Below, one piece after another: positions 23,163-28,278 of a stretch of 64,000 nt of DNA. Origin of the DNA: Fuerstiella sp. (lineage in GTDB: Bacteria; Planctomycetota; Planctomycetia; Planctomycetales; Planctomycetaceae); assembly GCA_022843805.1 (NCBI GenBank), contig JALHMY010000001.1, positions 70,008 through 134,007 of the forward strand, in the 5' to 3' direction. Numbering within the stretch: the first letter of the stretch is position 1; the number at the start of each line of letters is the position of its first letter. The position numbers and the translations under genes were made by a program. Below the pieces are notes generated by a model, which worked only from the letters and a program-made list of their open reading frames with translations, had not been told where the DNA came from and did not search any database.

Positions 23163-23470
23163 GCGGGTGTTGTTGGAACGGCGTTGCGGGTGTTATTGGT
23201 ACGGCGTTGAGTGCAATCCGCGGCGGGCCCTCCCCCGGCCTTCGGCCGACCCCTCCCACTCCGCTTCGCTCCGCGGGAGGGGAGGTTATAAAAACCTCCT
23301 CCCCCAACGAAGTTGGGGGAGGTCGAGCGAGCGGCAGCGAGATCGGGAGGGGGATGGTGAACCGCGGGGGAGGGTGTTATTGGGGCGGCGTTGAGTGCAT
23401 TACGCGGCGGGCCCTCCCCCGGCCTTCGGCCGACCCCTCCCACTTCGCTGCGCTGCGCGGGAGGGGAGGG
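23163..23470. repeat. Tandem GC-rich multi-hairpin repeat, two copies
   Basis: Two copies of a unit about 184 bp apart (marker GAGTGCA at 23209 and 23393). Each includes GGCCTTCGGCC, CCCCTCCCACT and the matching GGGAGGGG. Between them lies a perfect 11-bp stem, 23298-23308 with 23312-23322, closed by a GAA loop. The unit starts with a short motif (GGTGTTRTTGG.RCGGCGTTG) seen three times. The same element recurs in inverse orientation at 33990-34391. It fills the space between two convergent genes and has no credible coding content, although chance frames run through it. Confidence 0.85.
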
Positions 23471-23524: not shown

Positions 23525-24481
23525 TCAGGCCGTCTTCATGGCAGCAACACTTGCCTTCATCTTTTCAAGCCCGGTTTTTGCAACGCTGAGTGCATCCTGC
23601 TGCCAGTAATCCCGATTGAATAATTCCAGTGATAATGTCACCGATCGGTTCTTTCCGCCAACCAGGCCCAGGATGTGCTGCACAGGAGCAACTCCGTCCC
23701 CTGGGTAAACTCGGTGGGCATCGGTTATCTCTTCCCGCCCAGGCATCGCCGGATAATCATTGACATGGAAAACATGCACTGCCTCGTCGCTCAGCAACTG
23801 CAGCCCGCCGAATCCAGACCCTCCCTTGAAAATGTGATAAATATCCGGCAGCACACAGGCGCTGGGATGGTCGGCCTCGGTGCACACGAAAACCGTTTCG
23901 CCAAGTCTTGAAAGATTTGTGGAAAACCCCCAAACCTCCAGCTGAGGAACAACACCCGTCCGGTCCCCCAGCTCCAGCAGTGCCCGATAACGTTCCGCCA
24001 CAACGAACAGATCGAGCTTGTCTCCTTTGGTCGCGCCAGCCGGTGGGGCCGCAATCCGCGTGCCTCCAATTTCTCTCAGTACTTCCATGTCACGTTTCGC
24101 ATCGTCCAGAGCCTGTCGACGCTTTTCCGAATCGTCGACAATCCAGTTGGCAAACCCAATTGCACTGTCCACCGTCAATCCTGCATCTTCAATACGCTTC
24201 CGAAGGTCGGACAGTTTTCCGCCACCTTCCACATACTGATGAAGATTCTGCATCCACGGTTCAATCCCGTCGTATCCCGCCTCAGCCGTGATCCGAACTT
24301 CTTCCACAATTCCCAGCTGCTGACCACGAATGGTGCTGGTGTTCAGACAAAATCGAAACGGACTTGCTCCGTTTGTTTCTGTAGGGCTGTTTTCAGAAGA
24401 ACTCCGAACGGCATCTATCCCGCAAAGTCCGGCCACAAGTGCAGAGGAAGCAGACACAAAACCGCGACGTTTGATCGACAT
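23525..24481 (-). CDS. Exported sugar phosphate isomerase/epimerase-like TIM barrel
   Basis: A 318-residue protein of the AP-endonuclease-2/xylose isomerase-like TIM-barrel superfamily. It has a Tat-like leader (MSIKRRGFVSASSALVAG), then FRFCLNTSTIRG, AEAGYDGIEPWM, WGFSTNLSRLGETV, CVLPDIYHIFKGG, HVFHVNDYPA and LSLELFNRDYW, which form the strand ends and carry the likely metal ligands (Glu, Asp, His, Glu). Planctomycete paralogues are numerous and their substrates mostly unknown. It stands alone between the repeat cluster and the divergent ATPase cassette. Confidence 0.85.
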   Translation of the reverse strand: MSIKRRGFVSASSALVAGLCGIDAVRSSSENSPTETNGASPFRFCLNTSTIRGQQLGIVEEVRITAEAGYDGIEPWMQNLHQYVEGGGKLSDLRKRIEDAGLTVDSAIGFANWIVDDSEKRRQALDDAKRDMEVLREIGGTRIAAPPAGATKGDKLDLFVVAERYRALLELGDRTGVVPQLEVWGFSTNLSRLGETVFVCTEADHPSACVLPDIYHIFKGGSGFGGLQLLSDEAVHVFHVNDYPAMPGREEITDAHRVYPGDGVAPVQHILGLVGGKNRSVTLSLELFNRDYWQQDALSVAKTGLEKMKASVAAMKTA

Positions 24482-24801: not shown

Positions 24802-26745
24802 GTGAAACTGGCCTGGCATTTCAGCAAAGTGAATCCTCGATTTAAGAATCGGGAAGCCACACAGGGCGAATTTTTTGCCAGTGATACAGAGCTGCGCGGT
24901 TTTGTGCGTGAGGCCATACAGAACTCGCTGGATGCCCGGCGTCCTGGATTTACGGGAGCGATTGGCGTCCGAATTTTTCTTTCGGGGACGGAGAACGCGC
25001 TTCCGCGGGAGACGTCGAAGCGTTATTTCCGAGGCGGCTGGGATCATTTTCGAAGCGAATCCAGTGGCCTTCGGGACGCTCCGGTTTCTGACGAGCTTTG
25101 TCAGTTTGTTGTGTATGAAGACAGTGGGACGACCGGACTGACAGGCGACACGGATCAGTATCATGAGATCTCTGGCAGGCGGAATCCGTTTTACTACTTT
25201 TTTCGTGCCGAGGGTCAGTCGAACAAACGCGAAACGGGTCGCGGACGATGGGGACTGGGCAAATATGTCTTCCCTCGCAGCAGTCGAATACGGACGTTTT
25301 TTGGACTAACGGTTCGGTGCGATGATCGGCGACGACTGCTGGTCGGGCAGTCCATTCTCAGATCGCACGAAGTGGATGGAAAAAGCTACACGCCGGACGG
25401 ATGGTTTGGCGGCAAGCCTCCTCGTGAGGACGCAGCGCCACCGGTTGAAGACGACGACTTCATTGATCACTTTGAGCGCGATTTTTGCCTGGAGCGAAAA
25501 CGGGATCCCGGGTTGTCGATTGTGGTTCCGTTCTGCGACCCGACATGGGATGTCACTCAGGTGGCCAGCTGTATTGTTCAGGATTATTTCAGTGCCATCC
25601 TGCGAGATGAGCTGGTCGTGACGGTTGAGAGTCCGGATACGCAGCTGGTGATTCATTCGCAGTCGATCGCGGATGTGCTGACTCAGTGTGACGAGGACGT
25701 ACAGCTGCACATTCGGCCTTTGCTGGATTTGACGCTGTGGTCGAAGGCCTGTCAGGAAAGCGGGCAGCTGATTGTGCTGGCTCGCCGGGCCAGCCGGGGT
25801 GTGCCACGATGGACTCGCCGAGACCTTGATGACGAAGTGTTTGCCAGGATTCGCAGAGAGTATCGAAGCACTGGGCGTGCGGCGATTCGGATTCCTCTTC
25901 TGGTTCAGCCCAAAGGCGGAGAGCCCCGGCAGTCTCACTTCGACGTGTTTTTGGAGCGATGCGAATCGACCGTACAGCGACGACCCGTTTTTATTCGGGA
26001 AGGCATCGTGATTTCGGGCGTTCGTTCGCGCCTGATCCGGGACGTTAGCGCGATCGTGCAGATTGAAGATGCACCTCTGGCAACGTTTCTGGGTGACGCG
26101 GAGAATCCGGCACATACGGAATGGCACGAGGAATCATCGCACTTTAAAGGCAAGTACCTTCATGGTACGGCAACTCTGAGATTCGTCCGAAATACGGTTC
26201 CCGATCTTTGTCAGCTGCTGAGTGAAGAGCTGGAAGCTGAAGATTCGGAACTGTTGCTGGATGTCTTTTCCATCGGAACAGAAGGTGGCCAGGCGGGTTA
26301 TCCGGTTGGCTTTGAGAGTCGCAAATCTCGCGAGCGGTCATCAGCCGGCCTTGCGAAACTGCAGTCCGCGGCGCCCAGAGCAAAAGCCTGCCGAATCACT
26401 CGCCGAAAGGGAGGCTTTTGCATCACCGGAACAGGGCAGTCAGAAACGGAATCTGCTGATACTTCCAGAGGAGGCCCAAAAAACTCGTGCAAACGAATCG
26501 AAGTGCGAATGGCTTATGACAGGCGTCAGGGCAGTCCGCTGCGACGCTACAGCGCGACCGACTTTCAGCTTTCAGAAGCTCCGATATGCATCGAATCTTC
26601 GGGCACCAAAACGGAAATCGGTGGTCCGAATCTGCTGATTCTGACGCCGGAAGCCGGTCGTTTTGAGGTGATCGTAACCGGGTTTGATATCAATCGGGAC
26701 CTGTATGTCGTGACTCAGTCCGGAAAACTACATGCCTCGACTTAA
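24802..26745 (+). CDS. GHKL (Hsp90/MORC-like) ATPase, first gene of a three-gene cassette
   Basis: A 647-residue protein from GTG 24802, chosen because the family-like sequence begins there; the frame is open from 24598. Its GHKL ATP site is complete: REAIQNSLDA (E37, N41), the Asp box EDSGTTG (D107), and the lid GRGRWGLGKYVF (146-157). The preceding NREATQGEFF segment matches GHKL ATPases of phage-defence and restriction-type operons. The remaining 450 residues are mixed alpha/beta with no nuclease or helicase motif I can name. It overlaps the next gene by 14 bp. ATP-driven dimer closure, as in Hsp90, MutL and MORC, is expected. A defence role is inferred from family context only. Confidence 0.8.
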   Translation: MKLAWHFSKVNPRFKNREATQGEFFASDTELRGFVREAIQNSLDARRPGFTGAIGVRIFLSGTENALPRETSKRYFRGGWDHFRSESSGLRDAPVSDELCQFVVYEDSGTTGLTGDTDQYHEISGRRNPFYYFFRAEGQSNKRETGRGRWGLGKYVFPRSSRIRTFFGLTVRCDDRRRLLVGQSILRSHEVDGKSYTPDGWFGGKPPREDAAPPVEDDDFIDHFERDFCLERKRDPGLSIVVPFCDPTWDVTQVASCIVQDYFSAILRDELVVTVESPDTQLVIHSQSIADVLTQCDEDVQLHIRPLLDLTLWSKACQESGQLIVLARRASRGVPRWTRRDLDDEVFARIRREYRSTGRAAIRIPLLVQPKGGEPRQSHFDVFLERCESTVQRRPVFIREGIVISGVRSRLIRDVSAIVQIEDAPLATFLGDAENPAHTEWHEESSHFKGKYLHGTATLRFVRNTVPDLCQLLSEELEAEDSELLLDVFSIGTEGGQAGYPVGFESRKSRERSSAGLAKLQSAAPRAKACRITRRKGGFCITGTGQSETESADTSRGGPKNSCKRIEVRMAYDRRQGSPLRRYSATDFQLSEAPICIESSGTKTEIGGPNLLILTPEAGRFEVIVTGFDINRDLYVVTQSGKLHAST

Positions 26746-27532
26746 CTTTACAGGCCGCCGCAGGATTTCGCAGAGCCACGTGCAGATCAATGTTACGGGC
26801 ATTGGCGGTATTGAAACTTTTTCCGCTGAGCTGAAACTGCAATCCTATCGATTTCCGGACAACGCCCGAGTGATCATTGAAGCGTACCGGCAGCTGGAAC
26901 TTGTCCGTTTTGATTTTGGAACAGTCTCGAACACGGAACCGCCTTCGAGCTGCCGGCTGTCCGAATTTGGGACGTTGAATGGTGTGCGATTTCGTCTGAA
27001 GATTGTTTCCGCGGATCCGCCGTCAGGCCGATTGCTGGGTGTGGCGGATCGCATACAACCATGGGACCGGCATCAGGAATCCATACCACGAGTTCCTCTC
27101 CTGGCCGTGAGATCACAGGACCTTGGCCGTGAAATCTGGCGGCTTGATTTCACTGACGAACCTTTGCTGCTGGTCAACACGCGAGTCGCCTCAAGGAAAG
27201 CGCTCGTGCAGTCGGGTGAATTTCAGTCGCTGGTCCTGCCAGAGATTCTTCGAAGTATTCTGAACCGAATTGTACTGGTGGATCAGGTTCGAGCTCCGGA
27301 AGATTCGGACGACTGGACCAGTCGCTGGCTGCGATTCGCGCTGTCGCTGCCGGGGGTTTCGGAAATGCCGGAAGACCCCGATACCGAGCTGGATCTTGAC
27401 TGGATTGATTCAGCCGTGGGTTCATTCTGTCGATGGCGTGGAGCGGATCGCCAGTTCAGCGCATTCTGGCACAATCGCGCGTCACAGCAGGCAGAAGTTG
27501 CGGCAGTTGCGGATCCGGAGGATCCATGTTAG
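26732..27532 (+). CDS. Unrecognised protein, middle gene of the GHKL cassette
   Basis: A 266-residue soluble protein that I cannot assign. The N-terminal half is predicted beta-rich (FTGRRRISQSHVQINV, then NARVIIEAYRQLELVRFDFG). The middle has GREIWRLDFTDEPLLLVN, and the C-terminal third is helical and acidic (PEILRSILNRIVLV; SRWLRFALSLPGV). There is no signal peptide, membrane helix or clear catalytic motif. It overlaps the ATPase gene by 14 bp and the DUF6339-like gene by 7 bp, so all three must be expressed together, probably as a complex or pathway. Confidence 0.82.
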   Translation: MPRLNFTGRRRISQSHVQINVTGIGGIETFSAELKLQSYRFPDNARVIIEAYRQLELVRFDFGTVSNTEPPSSCRLSEFGTLNGVRFRLKIVSADPPSGRLLGVADRIQPWDRHQESIPRVPLLAVRSQDLGREIWRLDFTDEPLLLVNTRVASRKALVQSGEFQSLVLPEILRSILNRIVLVDQVRAPEDSDDWTSRWLRFALSLPGVSEMPEDPDTELDLDWIDSAVGSFCRWRGADRQFSAFWHNRASQQAEVAAVADPEDPC

Positions 27533-28278
27533 CCCGCCGACTCACTCTGACAGGCATCGAGCAGTTTGAATTGTGGCTGCAGCAGCTAAGGCACGATCCG
27601 CATCTGGATGCGCCTCTGGATCTGCTCGTGGGCAGCACGAGTTCCGCACCTCTGGACGTCGAAGTCGACGCCGAGTTTCGAAGTTTTCATTCCCGTCTGG
27701 AGGCTGCCGAGCATCTTTTCAGGATACTTCGTGGCGACCCGTCAACCTTAAGAAGCGATCGCGGCTTCTGGACATGGCTCTCGCTGTGCTGGTTCGACGA
27801 CCTTTGTCCGGTGGTCAGTGAGCGACGAGTTCCGGGAGACGCAGCAAGATGGATCTGCGATCTGGAGAATCCCAGACGAGCGTGTCGACATCTGCTGGCC
27901 GGTCCCTTTCAGATCTATCGGGCACACAGGGACGATCCGTCGCGAGCGCTTTCGCTGCTTTGCGGATCGATTTATCAGGCTGGTCCGCTGGTGAGTCTGA
28001 TCGCCTCACGGCCTTCGCTGGTCACATGCAACGCTGTTGTTGGAGCGGCCACGCGGCTGTATTACAACCATCAGGCGGGAAGGAACCGCCCGGGACTGTC
28101 AGCAAGAGCACCCGGAAGTCCACGTCGATTCGCTGATGTGCTCAGCCAGCTGGACCTCACCTGGGATTTGCATTCACTCACCACGGACGAGCTGCTTGCA
28201 TTGCTGCCGTCCGAGTTCGATCATTTTCACCGAGAAGCGTCAGCCGGAAAATCCCGGCAAAGGTTGTTGCTGGACTGA
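27526..28278 (+). CDS. DUF6339-like protein, third gene of the GHKL cassette
   Basis: A 250-residue soluble protein from ATG 27526, with GGAGG at 27516-27520 inside the preceding gene. Its pattern fits what I remember of DUF6339: LTLTGIEQFELWLQQLR at the start, DRGFWTWLSLCWFDDLCP, then RHLLAGPFQIYRAHRDDP followed by ALSLLCG, and near the end SPRRFADVLSQLDLTWDLH and ALLPSEFDHF. DUF6339 proteins occur at the end of operons with GHKL ATPases, Z1-domain proteins, PD-(D/E)XK proteins and DNA methyltransferases. None of those other partners is present here. The biochemical activity is not known. Confidence 0.72.
   Translation: MLARRLTLTGIEQFELWLQQLRHDPHLDAPLDLLVGSTSSAPLDVEVDAEFRSFHSRLEAAEHLFRILRGDPSTLRSDRGFWTWLSLCWFDDLCPVVSERRVPGDAARWICDLENPRRACRHLLAGPFQIYRAHRDDPSRALSLLCGSIYQAGPLVSLIASRPSLVTCNAVVGAATRLYYNHQAGRNRPGLSARAPGSPRRFADVLSQLDLTWDLHSLTTDELLALLPSEFDHFHREASAGKSRQRLLLD

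What the first reader, a model, noticed from the sequence alone, without database searches (positions are those of the whole stretch)
24802..28278. Compact GHKL ATPase, unknown protein and DUF6339-like cassette, possible defence system
Three genes overlap by 14 and 7 bp and form one unit. The first is a GHKL ATPase with complete N box, DxGxxG and lid motifs. The third looks like DUF6339, and the second is unassigned. GHKL ATPases and DUF6339 proteins are known from operons with Z1-domain proteins, PD-(D/E)XK proteins and DNA methyltransferases. Here the cassette stands alone, with no nuclease, helicase or methyltransferase beside it. It could be a minimal form of such a system with its effector hidden in the middle or C-terminal regions. 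A defence role is inference.
Basis: partly seen in the sequence, partly recalled or inferred. Interest (0 to 1): 0.78.

Follow-up and report, generated by a model that had tools for sequence, protein, structure and literature searches.

The report
Scattered paraMORC2 ATPase gene triad
Three genes that always travel together across many bacterial phyla, an ATPase related to the DNA-handling MORC/MutL proteins plus two proteins of unknown function, sit in most other lineages beside a DNA-methylating enzyme, but in this planctomycete group the set has come loose from that enzyme and been taken apart around the chromosome while all its pieces were kept, which makes a usually mobile DNA-discrimination system look like a settled resident.

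Summary
Three genes (24802-26745, 26732-27532, 27526-28278, +) overlap by 14 and 7 bp, and the first has intact GHKL motifs. Gene 1 is a paraMORC2-type ATPase: it matches the GHKL proteins of annotated GHKL / unknown / DUF6339 operons (hhalign E 3.6e-60) and carries that family's ExxxH motif in 83/83 relatives. Genes 2 and 3 match no Pfam family. Their models (pLDDT 92, 93) show a beta-sandwich plus helices and an all-helical protein; no nuclease fold was recognised. Gene 3 is only weakly DUF6339-like. The triad is conserved across many phyla. Outside two clades, 26 of 37 loci carry a cytosine-5 DNA methyltransferase within 8 kb, usually with Vsr. In the window's planctomycete clade none is linked. 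Instead the genes have scattered: in at least six genomes they lie at separate, partly syntenic loci, under purifying selection, with an unlinked EcoRII/Dcm-type methyltransferase in 14 of 18 genomes (11 of 93 other relatives). Best reading: a nuclease-less, restriction-modification-derived DNA-clamp complex that became resident and was dispersed. The defence role is inferred. A second clade keeps the triad in genomes where no cytosine-5 methyltransferase was found, so that dependence is not universal.

The parts
24802..26745 (+). gene 1: paraMORC2-type GHKL ATPase, 647 aa, GTG start
   Evidence: ORF and start conservation; PADLOC PDC-M33A 5.6e-19; hhalign E 3.6e-60 to annotated relatives; GHKL motifs and E434-x3-H438-x2-W441 in all or nearly all of 83 sequences
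26732..27532 (+). gene 2: 266 aa, N-terminal Fn3/Ig-like beta-sandwich plus helical C-terminal domain; no Pfam family; overlaps gene 1 by 14 bp
   Evidence: AlphaFold model pLDDT 92.4; VIA-align Z about 8 for residues 8-114 only; weak profile match to the middle gene of DUF6339 operons, E 5e-4
27526..28278 (+). gene 3: 250 aa, all-helical, weakly DUF6339-like; overlaps gene 2 by 7 bp
   Evidence: AlphaFold model pLDDT 92.8, no convincing PDB match; no Pfam match; profile match to DUF6339 proteins E 0.0014 around D-x-G-x-W-x-W-L
23525..24481 (-). divergent flanking gene, AP_endonuc_2 (xylose-isomerase-like TIM barrel); marks the chromosomal site shared with relatives
   Evidence: Pfam 5e-27; same neighbour of gene 1 in about nine related genomes, 62-71% identical

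Best explanation
The three genes encode one complex. Gene 1 is a paraMORC2 GHKL ATPase that, like MutL and MORC, probably dimerises on ATP and clamps or loops DNA; genes 2 and 3 are its dedicated, probably non-enzymatic partners (adaptor and DNA-contact subunits). In most lineages outside two clades the genes lie beside a cytosine-5 DNA methyltransferase and Vsr, so I take the complex to be the DNA-discriminating arm of a nuclease-less, methylation-linked defence system: DNA without the right m5C pattern is bound by the clamp and its use is blocked, or it is passed to another nuclease. In the window's planctomycete clade the module became a vertically inherited resident, lost linkage to the methyltransferase and then broke up in several lineages, while the unlinked methyltransferase and Vsr were largely kept. 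Shown: family identity, triad conservation, methyltransferase/Vsr linkage elsewhere, dispersal with co-retention, purifying selection. Inferred: complex formation, the clamp mechanism, m5C sensing and the defence role.
For: Gene 1 matches annotated GHKL proteins of GHKL / X / DUF6339 / cytosine methyltransferase operons at E 3.6e-60 and has the ExxxH motif that Iyer et al. 2008 (PMC2292703) give for paraMORC2. The triad is conserved in order and coupling across phyla. PF00145 methyltransferase lies in 26 of 80 loci, Vsr in 19, EcoRII-C in 4; outside the two unlinked clades 26 of 37. In the planctomycete clade g2 is found in 11 of 12 and g3 in 10 of 12 further genomes, often far from g1 and at syntenic sites. 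EcoRII/Dcm-type methyltransferase in 14 of 18 clade genomes versus 11 of 93 others, Fisher 4e-8. The Vsr of cassette genomes form one clade together with two others. dN/dS 0.02-0.12. No nuclease fold recognised in genes 2 and 3.
Against: A second clade of 23 loci (Nitrospirota, Nitrospinota, delta-, gamma-, betaproteobacteria) has no linked methyltransferase, and most of its genomes tested have no PF00145 match at all, including a 2.5-Mb chromosome assembly, so m5C is not always needed. The same type of methyltransferase occurs in 11 relatives without the close form of the triad. Fixed chromosomal sites, vertical inheritance and very low dN/dS are unusual for an arms-race gene. No phage or plasmid challenge data exist. 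The Fisher tests ignore shared ancestry (by genus p = 0.013 for the methyltransferase).
Confidence: 0.45

Rival explanations
1. The triad is a resident DNA-maintenance or nucleoid/regulatory machine (MORC- or MutL-like) recruited from a restriction-modification context; in this clade and in the methyltransferase-free clade it no longer serves defence.
For: Vertical inheritance at fixed loci, dispersal without loss, dN/dS down to 0.02 for gene 2; most genomes tested of the second clade lack a detectable cytosine-5 methyltransferase; no matches in viral contigs or phage records. Iyer et al. 2008 suggested that versions in non-RM contexts may have been recruited for mismatch repair.
Against: Patchy presence, 10 of 99 relatives; strong methyltransferase/Vsr linkage in the other lineages.
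Confidence: 0.3
2. The triad is a very-short-patch-repair accessory: a dedicated MutL analogue that works with Vsr to repair T:G mismatches from deaminated 5-methylcytosine.
For: Co-occurrence with both Dcm-type methyltransferase and Vsr, linked (19 loci) or unlinked; no nuclease of its own recognised; MutL acts with Vsr in E. coli (PMC2292703).
Against: Seven of the 26 methyltransferase-linked loci show no Vsr in the fetched stretch; the second clade keeps the triad in genomes without a detectable methyltransferase; Vsr and the methyltransferase occur in relatives without the triad.
Confidence: 0.15
3. Classical restriction: a nuclease activity is hidden in gene 1's C-terminal region or in genes 2/3.
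For: Conserved polar residues remain: E434, H438, D587 in gene 1; R121, H122, R201 in gene 3. Gene 1's C-terminal half was not modelled.
Against: No nuclease family in Pfam, NCBIfam, PHROGs or PADLOC for the three window proteins; no nuclease fold among Foldseek matches for genes 2 and 3.
Confidence: 0.1

Closest known systems
paraMORC2 GHKL ATPases of restriction-modification operons (Iyer, Abhiman & Aravind 2008, PMC2292703)
   Same: GHKL motifs, ExxxH motif after the ATPase module, methyltransferase/Vsr neighbourhoods in relatives, patchy cross-phylum spread
   Different: Always with two dedicated partners that match no Pfam family; in this clade no linked methyltransferase, and the three genes scattered yet retained
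GHKL / ~340 aa / DUF6339 / cytosine methyltransferase operons (e.g. Synechococcus elongatus plasmid pIITB6_1; haloarchaeal plasmids)
   Same: Same gene order and same ATPase family (hhalign E 3.6e-60)
   Different: Genes 2 and 3 are only weakly alignable to their counterparts (E 5e-4 and 1.4e-3); gene 3 fails the DUF6339 Pfam model; no methyltransferase in the window
PADLOC PDC-M33 (candidate defence family, protein M33A)
   Same: Gene 1 matches PDC-M33A at 5.6e-19
   Different: No PADLOC match for genes 2 and 3; the match covers under half of the profile
HEF_HK / Response_reg_2 two-component-like operons with cytosine methyltransferases and Vsr (Bellieny-Rabelo et al. 2021, PMC8011034)
   Same: In Bacteroidota locus L100 the triad lies downstream of Vsr, a methyltransferase and a HATPase_c_3 + HATPase_c protein
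   Different: A different GHKL protein; [quoted passage not shown] absent in the window
paraMORC3 / VcSduA Shedu (PMC12137116)
   Same: N-terminal GHKL ATPase used in anti-phage defence
   Different: VcSduA carries its own PD-(D/E)XK nuclease domain; no such domain was found here

Membership tests
paraMORC2 | intact GHKL ATPase motifs | tested here: met
   invariant or nearly so in 83 sequences
[quoted passage not shown]
   E434-x3-H438 in 83/83 and at the aligned place in annotated relatives; that it lies in the S5 domain was not shown
paraMORC2 | S5-fold domain after the GHKL domain | not tested
paraMORC2 | restriction-modification neighbourhood (methyltransferase, Vsr, nuclease, helicase) | tested here: inconclusive
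   met in 26 of 37 loci outside two clades; not met in the window's own neighbourhood; methyltransferase and Vsr unlinked in the genome
DUF6339 (PF19866), for gene 3 | match to the Pfam model | tested here: not met
   no match at E up to 1 for the window protein, nor at E up to 10 for four relatives; the model does match annotated DUF6339 proteins
DUF6339 (PF19866), for gene 3 | homology by profile-profile comparison | tested here: inconclusive
   hhalign E 0.0014, probability 17%, 37 columns; cross controls E 0.026 and 0.32
Restriction-modification system (type II) | cognate methyltransferase | tested here: inconclusive
   unlinked EcoRII/Dcm-type gene in 14 of 18 clade genomes, split into two ORFs in the window's genome; cognacy not shown
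Restriction-modification system (type II) | restriction endonuclease | tested here: inconclusive
   none recognised in genes 2 and 3; EcoRII-C absent from the cassette-bearing relatives; gene 1 C-terminal half not modelled
Z1-domain GHKL systems | Z1 and PD-(D/E)XK proteins in the operon | tested here: inconclusive
   none among the window's immediate neighbours searched and none in the top families of 72 neighbour proteins of relatives; the full family list was not shown

The most novel reading that the evidence does not exclude
A nuclease-less restriction-modification-derived system made of a paraMORC2 clamp, two protein families not in Pfam, a Dcm-type methyltransferase and Vsr has been domesticated in Planctomycetaceae as five unlinked, co-retained loci that still act as one self/non-self DNA system.
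Probability: 0.25. Interest if true: 0.8.

Novelty: new variant of a known kind. Interest (0 to 1): 0.55.

Why it matters
In 2008 a reviewer of the MORC paper asked whether standalone members (there paraMORC3) still work with restriction-modification genes elsewhere in the genome, and the authors had mostly failed to find any. This clade offers a natural experiment on that question: the same triad linked to a methyltransferase in other phyla, contiguous but unlinked in the window and G001, and fully dispersed in sister genomes, with an unlinked methyltransferase largely kept. It also defines two deeply conserved protein families that lack Pfam models, and makes it directly testable whether a GHKL clamp can discriminate DNA without a nuclease of its own.

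Tried and rejected
Hidden nuclease in genes 2/3: Pfam, PADLOC, NCBIfam, PHROGs, Foldseek and VIA-align gave none; absence of a match does not prove a new fold. DUF6339 search in 48 genomes rang nowhere, controls included, so it says nothing. EcoRII-type nuclease in the same genomes: absent from cassette-bearing relatives. Mobility on plasmids or phages: with a gammaproteobacterial gene 1 as query two weak plasmid matches and no phage match; no viral contig encodes a relative by tblastn. Literature: no paper held names DUF6339 or PDC-M33. Sequence relatives in the PDB: none significant. L027 was first read on the wrong strand and redone.

Full report
Observation. The GTG start of gene 1 is conserved in relatives. 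G+C content over the cassette is the same as around it, no tRNA lies in the window, and the neighbours examined are ordinary genes. The window lies on contig 1 of a 9.2-Mb genome assembly.

Identity of gene 1. Pfam and NCBIfam are silent; PADLOC gives only PDC-M33A, E 5.6e-19. A divergent relative in G097 (L045) matches PDC-M33A better and led to annotated plasmid operons in haloarchaea, Synechococcus, Deinococcus and Ligilactobacillus whose order is GHKL / middle protein of about 235-355 aa / DUF6339-type protein, mostly with a cytosine methyltransferase nearby, and with Vsr in Deinococcus (in the Deinococcus record the genes bear no DUF6339 label, but the third one matches the Pfam model). 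Profile comparison of gene 1 with these ATPases gives E 3.6e-60 over 497 columns. The motif E-x3-H-x2-W is shared. ExxxH is the feature that Iyer et al. 2008 give for paraMORC2, a GHKL family of restriction-modification operons (PMC2292703). I therefore class gene 1 as paraMORC2-like; the S5 domain itself was not tested.

Genes 2 and 3. Neither has a Pfam match, nor do their divergent relatives. Models built on 67 and 62 sequences are confident (pLDDT 92.4 and 92.8). Gene 2 is an N-terminal beta-sandwich, with Fn3/Ig-like Z scores near 8 that cover residues 8-114 only, plus a helical C-terminal part that was barely tested. Gene 3 is helical with no convincing PDB match. Gene 2 aligns weakly with the middle protein of the annotated operons (E 5e-4) and gene 3 with DUF6339 (E 1.4e-3, at the D-x-G-x-W-x-W-L motif), better than the crossed controls (E 0.026, 0.32). 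Together with the shared gene order I think these are the same three-gene architecture, but gene 3 cannot be filed as DUF6339.

Distribution and linkage. A scan of about 85,000 species genomes found 255 relatives of gene 1; the best 80 were fetched. Nearly all non-planctomycete loci long enough to tell carry g1-g2-g3 in that order, most often with start and stop overlapping by 4 bp. Neighbour clustering and Pfam show a cytosine-5 methyltransferase in 26 loci, Vsr in 19 and EcoRII-C in 4. On the gene 1 tree the linked loci are basal and paraphyletic; two clades have no linked methyltransferase, the window's planctomycete clade (20 rows) and a mixed Nitrospirota/Nitrospinota/proteobacterial clade (23 rows). 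Among the other 37 loci 26 are linked, and most of the 11 unlinked ones are on short contigs. The tree was a quick one and the place of long branches is unsure.

The planctomycete clade. Within 99 relatives the triad is patchy, 10 genomes. In the window and in G001 it is contiguous beside the AP_endonuc_2 gene. In G003 the three genes lie on three contigs; in G055 gene 1 stands alone at the AP_endonuc_2 site, a second gene 1 sits with gene 2, and gene 3 lies about 75 kb from these on the same contig. Of 12 further genomes 11 have gene 2 and 10 have gene 3. Where dispersed, the sites are partly syntenic: gene 2 after a protein-kinase gene in G148, G151, G152 and G153; gene 3 after a GAF-domain gene in G055, G147, G148, G151, G153 and G157. 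Closely related pairs give dN/dS of 0.02-0.12 for all three. Some of these assemblies are incomplete or fragmented, but in most of the separated cases the gene has other genes on both sides.

Unlinked partners. The window's genome and its relatives carry a methyltransferase of the EcoRII/Dcm type on another contig, closest among the fetched loci to the one beside the triad in L080, L084 and L104. It is present in 14 of 18 clade genomes and in 11 of 93 other relatives (Fisher 4e-8, not corrected for ancestry). In the smaller by-genus count the association is weaker (p = 0.013). The Vsr of six cassette genomes forms one clade with two cassette-free genomes (Fisher 5e-6, by genus 2.6e-4). In the window's genome the methyltransferase gene is interrupted between the catalytic part and the target-recognition part; the second ORF could have its own GTG start, so it is either a two-chain enzyme or a broken gene.

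Interpretation and limits. Family identity and cohesion of the triad are well supported; the mechanism is not. The link to m5C is strong in the other lineages and statistical in the window's clade, but most genomes tested in the second clade show no PF00145 match (these are assemblies of unknown completeness). The dispersal with co-retention shows that the genes are kept without needing an operon, which suggests a joint function and fits a domesticated system at least as well as an active defence island. A defence role remains inference.

Noticed in passing
L142 8220-9360 (-), G000 contig 57: EcoRII/Dcm-type methyltransferase interrupted between the catalytic motifs and the recognition region, with an insertion of about 50 bp; two ORFs of 217 and 157 aa, the second with a possible GTG start. 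A two-chain enzyme or a broken gene.
   Followed up: partly
L096:4737-7013: A gene 3 relative continues into several hundred residues of leucine-rich repeats up to the contig end.
   Followed up: no
L036, L037 (G055); L050, L260 (G147); L261 (G157): A second gene 1 copy sits directly upstream of gene 2 in three close genomes, while the first copy stays at the AP_endonuc_2 site in G055 and G147.
   Followed up: partly
L100, L115, L116, L121, L122: Bacteroidota loci place the triad downstream of Vsr and a methyltransferase; L100 also has a HATPase_c_3 + HATPase_c protein between them.
   Followed up: partly
L143 7989-9298; L148 8118-9250; L152 176-1479: The Vsr gene follows an AIR-carboxylase-like gene in three planctomycete genomes.
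   Followed up: no
window 23165-23469: Two direct copies of a 121-bp G+C-rich segment (86% identical) in the stretch between the beta-lactamase-like gene and the AP_endonuc_2 gene.
   Followed up: no
L275, L276: In haloarchaeal plasmids the GHKL/X/DUF6339 genes lie near genes annotated phospholipase D family and, in L276, helicase-related and Zn-binding proteins, which recalls DISARM; not tested.
   Followed up: no
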